Position numbers and translations under genes: made by a program
Part shown: positions 1 through 47,295 of the stretch, piece after piece
How positions within the stretch are numbered: position 1 is the first letter of the stretch
Layout: each line of letters opens with the position of its first letter
Notes under the pieces: model-generated
Seen by the model: only the letters and a program-made list of their open reading frames with translations
Database searches by the model: none
Told to the model about the DNA's origin: nothing
Assembly (NCBI GenBank): GCA_017480345.1
Contig: JAFVAU010000005.1
Coordinates: forward strand, 1-47,295
Direction: 5' to 3'
Source of the DNA: Bacteroidales bacterium
Lineage (GTDB): Bacteria; Bacteroidota; Bacteroidia; Bacteroidales; UBA932
DNA: 47,295 nt

Positions 1-52
1 CCAGTCCGCAGCATCTGTCTACGACCTGGGGAAACTCAATTGCTTTGTCCAT
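1..52 (-). CDS. IS110-like transposase, N-terminal fragment cut by window edge
   Basis: An ATG at 52 reads leftwards off the window for 17 codons: M-D-K-A-I-E-F-P-Q-V-V-D-R-C-C-G-L. The stretch V-D-R-C-C-G-L resembles the start of IS110-family transposases, where it is normally followed by D-V-H-K containing the first catalytic Asp. That residue would lie just outside the window, so the call rests on a short N-terminal similarity only. A TAACTTTG -7-type box (minus strand, 78-85) lies 25 bases upstream. IS110 elements usually lack long terminal inverted repeats, and none is visible in 53-173. It could be another protein. Confidence 0.5.
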   Translation of the reverse strand, partial: MDKAIEFPQVVDRCCGL

Positions 53-173
53 AGTGCTCGCCTTTGATTACTGTGGCCAAAGTTACGGAAATAACTTTTC
101 ATTCTCTTTGGCGAGCGTTAGCGGTCATGAGGATTTCATATGTTCAAGATTTTAGTGGGCAAATATAATCATT

Positions 174-45660: not shown

Positions 45661-45750
45661 ATGATAGCCTCTTTTTCTTTTGGCACGCATCTTGACCATA
45701 TAGGGGACCGGGCCCATTGTGCCCCAAAATATGACAAATTGGCAGATAAT

Positions 45751-47295
45751 ATGAATTTTTTAGACAATATCATGAATGCTCCCCAGGGAGTGGAAGTAAA
45801 CATCATGCCCGTGGTGGGTGAAGCCGCCTCCATGAAAGTGGACGTCTCAGAGCTCCCCCCCGCCCTGCCGGTGCTTCCCCTCCGCAACGCCGTCATCTTC
45901 CCCGGAACCGTTTTCCCGGTGACGGTGGGAAGGGAGAAAAGCATCAAGCTGGTCTCTGACGTAGAGGGCGGAAATGGCTGGCTGGCCGCCATTCCCCAGG
46001 CCGATATTTCCGTGGAGGAACCCACGGAAGCGGACCTTTGCACCCACGGAACCGTGTGCAAGCTCATCAAGACGCTGGAAATGCCGGACGGCAGCATCAC
46101 GGCCATCCTGCAGGGCTCCCAGCTGGTGAGCCTGGAATCCGTGGTTTCCAACGATCCCTACATGATGGCCCGCGTGAGCTATCTGGAAGAGCTGATGCCC
46201 GAAGGAGTGGACGAGCGGGAACTCCGCGTCCTGGCCGATTCCCTCAAGGAAAAGGCCGCCCTCATCGTGAAATCCTCCTCCTTCGCCCCCAAGGAAGCCA
46301 TCGGCGCGCTCCGAAGCATCGACAACTTCCATTTCCTGGTGAATTTCATCGCCACCACCATCGAGGTGGAAAACTTCCAGGAAAGGACGGCCCTGCTGCC
46401 CATCGTCAACGTGCAGGAACGCGGCCTGGCCCTCCTGAGGGTGCTGGACGCCCAGACACAGCTGCTCCAGATCAAGCAGGAGATCAACCAGAAGGTGAAG
46501 ACGGATATAGACCAGCAGCAGCGGGAATACTACCTCAACAACCAGCTCCGCACCATCCAGGAAGAGCTGGGCATGGACGAGGGAGAGGAATTCGAGAAGA
46601 TGCGCCGCCGGGCCGATGAGAAAAAATGGTCCAAGGAAGTGCGCGCCATCTTTGACAAGGAAATGGCCCGCCTGGAAAAATACAATCCCAGCTCTCCGGA
46701 CTACAGCATCCAATATGCCTACATCCAGTTCATGCTGGATCTCCCCTGGGGAGAAATATCCGATGACAACCTGGACCTCCAGCATGCCCAGGAAGTGCTG
46801 GACCAGGACCACTTCGGCCTGGACCAGGTGAAGGACCGCATCATCGAATATCTGGCCGTGCTCAAGCTCAAGGGAAACATGAAATCCCCCATCCTGTGCC
46901 TCTGGGGCCCTCCCGGCGTGGGCAAGACCTCGCTGGGCAAGTCCATCGCCCGGGCCCTGGGACGCAAATACATCCGCATCTCGCTGGGCGGCATGCACGA
47001 CGAGGCGGAAATCCGCGGTCACCGCAAAACCTATGTGGGCGCCCTTCCCGGCCGCATCCTTAGCGGCATCCAGCGGGCCGGCACCTCCAACCCGGTGATT
47101 GTCCTGGACGAGATTGACAAACTCTCCTCCGACTTCAAGGGAGACCCTTCCAGCGCCCTGCTGGAGGCCCTGGACCCGGAGCAGAACAGCACCTTCCACG
47201 ACAACTACCTGGACGTGGACTACGACCTCTCCAACGTCCTGTTCATCACCACGGCCAACGGCATCGGCACCATCCAGCCCGCCCTGAAAGACCGC
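45751..47295 (+). CDS. lon: ATP-dependent protease Lon, N-terminal two-thirds (cut by window end)
   Basis: 515 codons are present without a stop. The LON substrate-binding domain (about 30-240; L-P-V-L-P-L-R-N-A-V-I-F-P-G) and a coiled-coil segment (E-Y-Y-L-N-N-Q-L-R-T-I-Q-E-E-L-G, about 265-280) lead into the AAA+ module. Walker A is G-P-P-G-V-G-K-T-S (386-394) and Walker B V-I-V-L-D-E-I-D-K (about 449-457). The Ser-Lys protease domain would lie beyond the edge. Lon degrades damaged and regulatory proteins. No clear promoter was identified; an internal ATG at 45772 is a less likely start. Confidence 0.94.
   Translation, partial: MNFLDNIMNAPQGVEVNIMPVVGEAASMKVDVSELPPALPVLPLRNAVIFPGTVFPVTVGREKSIKLVSDVEGGNGWLAAIPQADISVEEPTEADLCTHGTVCKLIKTLEMPDGSITAILQGSQLVSLESVVSNDPYMMARVSYLEELMPEGVDERELRVLADSLKEKAALIVKSSSFAPKEAIGALRSIDNFHFLVNFIATTIEVENFQERTALLPIVNVQERGLALLRVLDAQTQLLQIKQEINQKVKTDIDQQQREYYLNNQLRTIQEELGMDEGEEFEKMRRRADEKKWSKEVRAIFDKEMARLEKYNPSSPDYSIQYAYIQFMLDLPWGEISDDNLDLQHAQEVLDQDHFGLDQVKDRIIEYLAVLKLKGNMKSPILCLWGPPGVGKTSLGKSIARALGRKYIRISLGGMHDEAEIRGHRKTYVGALPGRILSGIQRAGTSNPVIVLDEIDKLSSDFKGDPSSALLEALDPEQNSTFHDNYLDVDYDLSNVLFITTANGIGTIQPALKDR

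What the first reader, a model, noticed from the sequence alone, without database searches (positions are those of the whole stretch)
1..47295. Highly iterated heptamer GGCCGAT/ATCGGCC across the window
By eye I counted about 89 occurrences (about 50 GGCCGAT and 39 ATCGGCC on the given strand), roughly one per 530 bp. From my estimate of base composition about 8 would be expected. It is read in different codon contexts (GCC-GAT, TCG-GCC, ATC-GGC-C) and also in the linkers of non-coding repeat family A (2898, 7459, 11209), so codon choice alone does not explain it. The full palindrome ATCGGCCGAT was noted once (8921-8930). The density recalls HIP1 of cyanobacteria or DNA-uptake signals of Neisseria/Pasteurellaceae. 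I know of no such motif described for Bacteroidales; role (uptake, methylation, chromosome segregation, repair) is open.
Basis: partly seen in the sequence, partly recalled or inferred. Interest (0 to 1): 0.78.

Follow-up and report, generated by a model that had tools for sequence, protein, structure and literature searches.

The report
Genome-wide iterated heptamer, strand-balanced, in Bacteroidales
A group of uncultured gut bacteria carries one seven-letter DNA word about every 660 letters, twelve times more often than its reversed spelling, tending to alternate between the two strands and preserved in the nearest relatives, which points to an unknown signal that the cell reads on its own DNA.

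Summary
The window holds 91 copies of GGCCGAT/ATCGGCC (50+41); about 10 are expected. The genome holds 3,333, against 274 of the reversed word. Codon use is not the cause: the fold excess is as large between genes (55 vs 6.8) as within (569 vs 76.5), and 1,136 of 2,818 positions where the protein permits the word carry it. It marks one clade of a Cryptobacteroides-like genus (15 of 200 genomes have at least 1,000 per Mb), with first-base dialects G/T. In the two nearest dense relatives sites are kept about twice as often as comparison heptamers. The word is scarce in mobile and ribosomal DNA. New: neighbouring copies alternate in orientation more than chance allows, repeated in a second genome but not in less dense ones. 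That argues against neutral mutation bias and is the opposite of polarised Chi. No methyltransferase of four families is shared and no type II/IV secretion ATPase was found; AddAB-type genes and ComEC are present. Best reading: a selected, orientation-read recombination or self-DNA signal. Its reader is unidentified.

The parts
1..47295 (.). All 91 copies of the heptamer. GGCCGAT starts (50): 1137,1176,1719,2466,3088,4200,4222,6083,7035,7113,7459,8065,8875,8924,9423,12670,13001,13556,13664,14348,14699,16807,16891,19475,19536,21883,22036,23864,24412,27167,27286,28234,28445,31598,31825,31973,33076,33334,35582,35693,36514,36726,38622,39412,40202,42635,43110,45999,46233,46611. ATCGGCC starts (41): 1299,2640,2898,3172,4688,6281,6744,7990,8921,10013,11209,12728,13367,13952,14810,15758,16461,16476,17359,19240,19989,20516,23626,24797,24914,27587,28193,29328,29436,31754,34398,35395,35606,37695,37941,38301,38770,40642,41258,41988,42761.
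   Evidence: exact pattern search
8921..8930 (.). ATCGGCCGAT, the only place in the window where two copies overlap as a 10-bp palindrome (24 such pairs in 801,869 bases of the genome)
2898..2904 (-). copy inside the linker of the non-coding repeat family (GGGACGTTACTCGCA and its complement)
   Evidence: repeat copies located
7459..7465 (+). copy inside the linker of the same repeat family
11209..11215 (-). copy inside the linker of the same repeat family
12587..16075 (-). isoleucyl-tRNA synthetase gene (naming inferred from Pfam tRNA-synt_1, Anticodon_1 and DUF5915); 17 copies in the 6,486 bases of L021 around it; used as the marker for finding relatives

Best explanation
GGCCGAT is a chromosome-wide DNA signal held in place by selection or drive in one clade of a Cryptobacteroides-like genus, and it is read with its orientation. 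Shown: the sharp 7-bp word, its filling of 40% of permissive positions, its independence of coding, its conservation in the nearest dense relatives, its scarcity in recently acquired DNA, the first-base dialects, the absence of chromosome polarity, and the local balancing of the two orientations in the densest genomes. Inferred: a protein that moves along or enters DNA recognises the word in one direction only, so that a second copy in the same direction nearby is redundant while a copy on the other strand is not. The best candidate process is homologous recombination of own DNA (repair of broken ends and of incoming DNA). The best candidate reader among those found is the AddAB-type helicase-nuclease, whose PDDEXK domains lie in all 46 genomes searched.
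For: Enrichment is equal in coding and intergenic DNA and 5.5 times the synonymous-shuffle mean. 1,136 of 2,818 permissive positions are filled. Serine codon TCG is used in 186 of 216 cases in the A_GCC context against 415 of 5,605 where neither neighbour fits. Sites kept: 56 of 92 (G137) and 46 of 112 (G199), against 34-37% and 15-20% of comparison heptamers; of the lost sites 12 of 36 and 10 of 66 differ at one base only, against 46-52% and 42-44%. Flanks of kept sites are no better conserved than background. Orientation: adjacent copies opposite 668, same 509, p=4e-6, first of 473 heptamers; both halves of G000 and G199 repeat it (265 to 201, p=0.0035). A null drawn from permissive positions reaches the observed opposite fraction in 0 of 300 draws in G000 and in G199. 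The strand-difference variance is 55-87% of the null at 10 kb to 500 bp in G000. AddAB-type PDDEXK genes in 46 of 46 genomes. Element L016 fills 1 of 32 permissive positions, expected 11.9.
Against: The reader protein is not identified. AddAB-type genes are in word-poor genomes too, so they do not explain why only one clade has the word. Known Chi sites are polarised along the replication strand (PMC8022716, introduction and methods section read); this word is not. The alternation is absent in 16 less dense relatives (144 opposite, 153 same) and not significant in G137 (123 to 104). Total spacing is not more even than random. In a smaller comparison G000 sites were kept at or below control in 10 of 25 stretches from relatives. 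Lost sites lie in more divergent flanks (75.8% against 82.3% identity, and 73.1% against 77.3%), which explains part of the shortage of one-base losses. No recombination assay exists.
Confidence: 0.35

Rival explanations
1. DNA uptake signal: competent cells prefer fragments that carry the word, and repeated transformation with own DNA drives it up, as in Neisseriaceae and Pasteurellaceae.
For: Density (1 per 0.67 kb), strand equality without chromosome bias, species dialects, scarcity in mobile DNA, and sites that differ by several bases at once in relatives, like the neisserial case in PMC2397512 (passages read). The ComEC competence domain was found in 192 of 200 genus genomes (191 over the cut-off), among them all 24 dense or dialect genomes that I followed. 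Riemerella columbina, another member of Bacteroidota, is reported to prefer its own DNA (PMC7965970, passages read).
Against: No type II/IV secretion or pilus ATPase over the cut-off in any of 24 dense or dialect genomes. ComEC frames are listed as short (mostly 350-430 aa). The word is not richer between genes than within. Uptake in Haemophilus did not depend on the orientation of the word (PMC1939737, passages read), so orientation balancing is not expected.
Confidence: 0.27
2. HIP1-like or one-strand methylation mark: a methyltransferase modifies the word, and mark-guided mismatch repair or another reader then keeps it. A one-strand mark would need copies on both strands.
For: The word has the shape of a non-palindromic adenine-methylation site (A next to last; recalled from memory of MmeI-like, type III and BREX sites, no call). 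A one-strand mark would explain strand balancing. The first base is the one that varies between genomes; Elhai found deviations at the ends of HIP1 (PMC4390886, abstract and first part of section 3.4 read).
Against: No methyltransferase family is shared. Over the cut-off: Eco57I 10 of 22 dense genomes (one only with its neighbours in the frame), N6_N4_Mtase 4 of 22, C5 methylase 5 of 22, N6_Mtase 10 of 24; 8 of 22 have none of the four, including the densest, G137. The word is not a palindrome. Other one-off words such as GGCCAAT are raised as much as the base-1 variants, and single-base losses are spread over the word. Not tested: D12 (Dam-like) methylases and other families; the genomes are incomplete.
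Confidence: 0.15
3. Neutral bias: context-dependent mutation, repair or gene conversion converts neighbours of the word into it, without function.
For: CGA/TCG is about half as frequent in the genome as in word-poor relatives although the word contains it, so some context-dependent process may act. Newly arrived DNA is poor in the word, as with a slow filling process.
Against: A site-by-site bias places copies independently, but orientation is balanced locally. The ribosomal protein operon escapes it (1 of 20, expected 7.7), as expected of weak selection in conflict with codon selection.
Confidence: 0.1
4. Codon or codon-pair preference.
For: Most copies in genes fall in three reading frames (Ala-Asp, Ser-Ala, Ile-Gly).
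Against: The same fold excess between genes (55 vs 6.8). It overrides codon preference: rare TCG rises from 7% to 86% only where it completes the word.
Confidence: 0.01

Closest known systems
DNA uptake sequences (DUS of Neisseriaceae, USS of Pasteurellaceae)
   Same: non-palindromic, about one per kb, equal on both strands without chromosome bias, present in genes in preferred frames, poor in recent acquisitions, dialects between species
   Different: 7 bp instead of 9-12 (lengths recalled); no higher fold excess between genes and no terminator-like close pairs; local orientation balancing; no pilus or secretion ATPase found
Chi and Chi-like sites (GCTGGTGG of E. coli; GAAGCGG of S. aureus)
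   Same: short non-palindromic word, over-represented in the backbone, read by a helicase-nuclease; AddAB-type genes are present here
   Different: denser (1 per 0.67 kb against 1 per 5 kb in E. coli, PMC8022716); not polarised but the reverse: consecutive copies alternate
HIP1 of cyanobacteria (GCGATCGC)
   Same: similar density (about 1 per kb, PMC4390886); clade-wide with substitute words in some genomes
   Different: HIP1 is a palindrome tied to known methyltransferases; neither holds here
KOPS / architecture-imparting sequences (recalled; for the latter only an abstract in a listing)
   Same: genome-wide short words
   Different: those are skewed along the replication arms; this one is balanced in all 21 stretches tested

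Membership tests
DNA uptake sequence | hundreds to thousands of copies, far over expectation, both strands equal, no orientation bias along the chromosome | tested here: met
   1,664 and 1,669 copies; strand chi-square 12.9 for 21 stretches
DNA uptake sequence | over-represented in intergenic DNA, often as inverted pairs in terminators | tested here: not met
   observed/expected 8.1 between genes and 7.4 within; per kb fewer between genes (0.93) than within (1.66); the only common close pair is the 10-bp overlap
DNA uptake sequence | poor in recently acquired DNA | tested here: met
   1 of 32 permissive positions filled in an integrase-primase element (expected 11.9), 4 of 15 (expected 7.3) in a MobA element; two elements only
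DNA uptake sequence | species dialects of the word | tested here: met
   TGCCGAT exceeds GGCCGAT in G072 (2,678 vs 1,702) and G179 (1,494 vs 868); G000 738 vs 3,333
DNA uptake sequence | type IV pilus or related machine and ComEC | tested here: not met
   PF00437 over the cut-off in 0 of 24 dense or dialect genomes; ComEC domain in 24 of 24. Other machines not excluded
DNA uptake sequence | fragments with the word are taken up better | not testable with these tools
   needs a culture
HIP1 | palindrome | tested here: not met
   GGCCGAT is not a palindrome; flanking positions carry about 0.12 bit at most, except +1 (0.33 bit)
HIP1 | conserved methyltransferase for the word or its core | tested here: not met
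   four families, none shared; 8 of 22 dense genomes have none over the cut-off; other families untested
Chi site | over-representation in the backbone | tested here: met
Chi site | polarised: consecutive copies on the same strand more often than chance | tested here: not met
   the reverse: 668 opposite, 509 same
Chi site | RecBCD or AddAB present | tested here: met
   PF12705 genes in 46 of 46 genomes, two or more matches in 40 of them; the names AddB and AddA are my inference from size and pairing
Chi site | stops degradation and stimulates recombination | not testable with these tools
   needs enzyme or culture

The most novel reading that the evidence does not exclude
A new kind of chromosome-wide signal whose unit of selection is the local balance of both orientations: each stretch of the chromosome is selected to carry the word on both strands alternately, read by a direction-sensitive machine not yet described, with a specificity that has changed from (G/T)GCCGAT to GGCCGAT within one genus.
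Probability: 0.3. Interest if true: 0.9.

Novelty: new variant of a known kind. Interest (0 to 1): 0.78.

Why it matters
Few kinds of genome-saturating words are known, and the role of HIP1 is still open. Here is one that I did not find described in the open papers searched, in a widespread gut lineage, with relatives that lack it and intermediate dialects. The gain, spread and loss of such a word can therefore be followed on a tree, and its reader can be sought by comparing sister species. The alternation of orientation separates selection from mutation bias by sequence alone and can be tested at once on the uptake words of Haemophilus and Neisseria. If the word is a self-DNA signal, it also bears on how these uncultured bacteria exchange genes.

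Tried and rejected
Codon choice: rejected. Chi with polarity and KOPS: rejected for lack of skew. Methylation word: three adenine-methylase families and the C5 family searched, none shared. CRISPR as a route to phages: Cas1 in 0 of 22 dense genomes.

Other words in word-poor genomes: a synonymous-shuffle scan of 13 word-poor genomes (20-40 kb each) gave best heptamers of z 4.6 to 6.7 and, among hexamers, ATATTC in G057 at z 8.1. Dense genomes in samples of similar size range from z 2.0 (L145) and 5.0 (L140) to 10.4 (L131). So the scan excludes a word as strong as in G137 but not one as strong as in G169; whether other lineages have words of their own is open. The ratio to the reversed word overstates the excess in some genomes: G051 has a ratio of 7.3 (632 to 87), but its 40-kb sample has 9 copies in genes against 13.7 by synonymous shuffle; G084, G049 and G171 also show none in their samples. 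A second word, GGAAAGC, stood out in L052, L134 and L139 (L052 and L134 seem to be the same contig) and pooled over L131-L148 in coding (155 vs 64.8) but not in intergenic DNA (6 vs 7.3); not followed.

An apparent break in isoleucyl-tRNA synthetase near residue 736 looked like recombination; it was only a split alignment. Near-miss depletion in G000 is not clean, because CGA is rare in G000 generally; the cleaner test is.

I counted the word in the 203 of at least 4 kb and looked at the layout of nine. One, L370, looked like a word-rich phage (17 copies in 7 kb; portal and head genes). Its fuller stretch L543 shows that its own leading word is ACGGCCG (109 copies) and that CTAG is common there, unlike in the host, so I dropped it as evidence. 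The eight relatives of its portal gene that one search found besides itself show no comparable excess.

The AddB-type tree only recovers the clade.

Full report
What was claimed and what is there. The window holds 91 copies of GGCCGAT or ATCGGCC, 50 and 41 on the given strand, against 10.0 +/- 3.0 in shuffles that keep dinucleotides. It is the leading heptamer of the window by z-score. In 401,869 bases of the same genome (window plus 20 stretches) there are 623, with 89.6 expected by an order-2 and 125.6 by an order-3 Markov model. In the whole draft genome (2.22 Mb, 46 contigs) there are 3,333, one per 666 bases, against 274 of the word read backwards. The word has sharp edges: outside the 7 bases no position carries more than about 0.12 bit, except the next base (0.33 bit, G in 54%, C in 6%). 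The shortage of C there fits the general shortage of GATC in this genome (1.44 per kb against 3.91 in 24 word-poor stretches).

Not codon use. With genes called by a simple script, the word is 7.4 times over expectation in coding DNA (569 vs 76.5) and 8.1 times in intergenic DNA (55 vs 6.8), where it leads all heptamers by z-score. Shuffling synonymous codons gives 103.5 on average and at most 124 in 60 runs, against 569; five of six frames are enriched, one is not (3 vs 4.4). The serine codon TCG is used in 186 of 216 cases between a codon ending in A and GCC, and in 415 of 5,605 where neither neighbour fits. Of 2,818 positions in the called genes of 801,869 bases where the protein allows the word without an amino-acid change, 1,136 carry it.

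Where it occurs. The 24 same-genus relatives range from the level of the reversed control to 1,795 copies. Of the 16 genomes from other families of the order, the highest ratio to the control is 3.1 on small numbers (22 to 7, G025); the rest are at 1.75 or less. In 200 genomes of the genus, own included (sizes rounded by the tool), 15 have at least 1,000 per Mb and 26 at least 600; most of the rest are at one to three times the control word, which overstates the excess in some. Named relatives of the marker gene are uncultured Bacteroidales, many from the rumen, and Candidatus Cryptobacteroides, so the genus is Cryptobacteroides-like; this name is an inference. On a tree of a 780-residue part of the AddB-type protein of 30 genomes, 19 dense genomes form one side of a branch (SH-aLRT 100), with G200 and G072 nearest its base; G088 and G091 lie outside. 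The first base varies: TGCCGAT has 2,678 copies in G072 (GGCCGAT 1,702), 2,001 in G200 (2,478), 1,494 in G179 (868) and 1,371 in G088 (1,319), but only 738 in G000 (3,333) and 961 in G137 (4,066). So the core is GCCGAT, with dialects at base 1. Scans of 13 word-poor genomes found no word as strong as in the densest genomes, but would miss a moderate one.

How it evolves. Between G000 and G137 (54,814 aligned bases, 83% identical) 56 of 92 sites are kept, and G137 has 101; comparison heptamers are kept in 34-37%. Against G199 (72,264 bases, 78%) 46 of 112 are kept; comparison heptamers 15-20%. Flanks of kept sites are as conserved as background. Of the lost sites only 12 of 36 and 10 of 66 differ at a single base, against 46-52% and 42-44% for comparison heptamers: a site tends to be either whole or gone. 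Part of this is that lost sites lie in more divergent flanks (75.8% against 82.3%; 73.1% against 77.3%). An earlier comparison around the marker gene gave the same turnover for G137 (13 of 25 kept, 24 in G137), but over 25 stretches from relatives the kept fraction was above control in 15 and at or below it in 10, the latter mostly where the relative itself has few sites. So many G000 sites are recent gains.

Of 8 gaps of over 3.8 kb without the word, 4 were annotated: a MobA/integrase element (C11), a TonB-receptor locus (C15), the ribosomal protein-secY operon (C13) and the integrase-primase contig L016. Permissive positions filled: 1 of 32 in L016 (expected 11.9), 1 of 25 in the TonB locus (10.4), 1 of 20 in the ribosomal operon (7.7), 4 of 15 in the MobA element (7.3), against 16 of 41 and 14 of 40 in the flanks of the ribosomal operon. 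By codon bias, the most biased fifth of genes is poorer (166 against 203.1 expected), but so, less, is the least biased fifth (178 against 199.1). This is what weak selection in conflict with strong codon selection would give, with newly arrived DNA not yet filled; other readings are possible.

Orientation. No stretch shows a strand bias (21 stretches, chi-square 12.9, largest |z| 1.73), so the word does not follow the replication arms. But the two orientations are more balanced than chance. In 801,869 bases (1,222 sites) adjacent copies are opposite in 668 and the same in 509 cases (p=4e-6), and strand counts in 10-kb bins vary only 0.55 times as much as binomial. Among 473 heptamers with at least 250 copies, itself included, it ranks first on both measures. 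The two halves of the data agree (p=0.0009 and 0.0017), G199 repeats it (265 to 201, p=0.0035), G137 leans the same way (123 to 104, not significant), and 16 less dense relatives do not show it (144 to 153). In G199 it ranks sixth of 119 heptamers for opposite neighbours and second for strand balance. Drawing sites at random from the permissive positions gives an opposite fraction of 0.507 +/- 0.014 against 0.565 (0 of 300) in G000 and 0.519 +/- 0.021 against 0.579 (0 of 300) in G199; for strand balance 1 of 300 and 3 of 300 draws reach the observed value. The variance of the strand difference is reduced at every scale from 500 bases to 10 kb in G000 (87% to 55% of the null; z -2.9 to -4.8), less clearly in G199 (z -1.9 to -3.1) and not significantly in G137, while the counts on the two strands rise and fall together and the total is not more even than random. 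Convergent and divergent neighbours are about equally common (344 and 324). A bias that acts on single sites would not do this; a reader that uses the orientation would.

Candidate readers. Four methyltransferase families were searched in 22 to 24 dense or dialect and 22 word-poor genomes. Over the cut-off in the former: Eco57I 10 of 22, N6_N4_Mtase 4 of 22, C5 5 of 22, N6_Mtase 10 of 24; 8 of 22 have none. A HIP1-like link to a conserved enzyme is thus not met, with the reserve that drafts are incomplete and D12 enzymes were not searched. Type II/IV secretion or pilus ATPases are over the cut-off in 0 of 24 dense or dialect and 5 of 22 word-poor genomes. The ComEC core domain was found in 192 of 200 genomes, 191 over the cut-off. 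AddAB-type nucleases are in 46 of 46. Cas1 is in 0 of 22 dense genomes.

Reading. The class-level statement, that the word is maintained by selection or drive and read with its orientation, is well supported for the densest genomes. The choice of process is not. Uptake words fit density, dialects, strand equality, scarcity in mobile DNA and the turnover, but not the missing pilus machine, the lack of a higher intergenic excess or the orientation balancing; in Haemophilus the orientation of the word had no effect on uptake (PMC1939737, passages read). Chi sites fit orientation reading and the presence of AddAB, but known ones are polarised and rarer (PMC8022716, introduction and methods section read). 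I put a Chi-like, unpolarised recombination signal slightly ahead of an uptake signal. A one-strand methylation mark would also need copies on both strands and is kept at 0.15.

In print. A full-text search for the words GGCCGAT, ATCGGCC and GCCGAT in the open PMC library gave 6 papers, all for GCCGAT only and by their titles none on bacterial genome words. A search on Cryptobacteroides, methylation, motif, uptake and overrepresented (any three) gave 20,376 papers; none of the 15 listed holds the word Cryptobacteroides. Subscription papers are not held. Other searches served for background.

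Noticed in passing
window 2859-2946, 7418-7504, 11170-11257: Non-coding repeat family with core GGGACGTTACTCGCA in both orientations (8 exact copies in the window); copies of its inner 12-mer elsewhere in the 801,869-base sample: 4 in L009 and 1 in contig C19. The heptamer sits in the linkers.
   Followed up: partly
L543 (IMGVR_UViG_3300037706_000053): A phage contig with its own highly iterated word ACGGCCG/CGGCCGT: 109 copies in 17.9 kb (3.9 expected; 102 in genes against 16 by synonymous shuffle), in all six frames. 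Host unknown.
   Followed up: partly
G000 contigs C12 and C7; G052:C1, G148:C16, G169:C1, G043:C22, G092:C81, G130:C67 and others: The two AddAB-type genes, adjacent in 19 of 22 word-poor genomes and in G200, G124 and G091, lie about 20 kb apart (7) or on different contigs (11) in 18 of 24 dense or dialect genomes (3 more show only one match). In the 6 of 7 with a listed ComEC place, ComEC lies between them.
   Followed up: no
window and L001-L020: GATC and TCGA are rare in this genome (1.44 and 2.07 per kb; word-poor relatives 3.91 and 5.89), CTAG is rare in both (0.13 and 0.17), and the trimer CGA/TCG is about half as frequent as in word-poor relatives.
   Followed up: partly
L134, L139, L052: A second heptamer, GGAAAGC/GCTTTCC, is enriched in coding DNA of G163 and G148 (17-19 against 2.3-4.4), but pooled over 18 relatives it shows no intergenic excess.
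   Followed up: partly
genus-wide ComEC loci, e.g. L151-L158: ComEC open frames are listed mostly at about 350-430 aa, shorter than the usual full-length protein (length recalled).
   Followed up: no
window 20327-24562, minus strand: A 1,411-aa frame joins a glycogen synthase and a glycogen phosphorylase domain in one protein, next to glycogen-debranching and CBM48/alpha-amylase-type genes; a 1,394-aa frame is open on the opposite strand.
   Followed up: no
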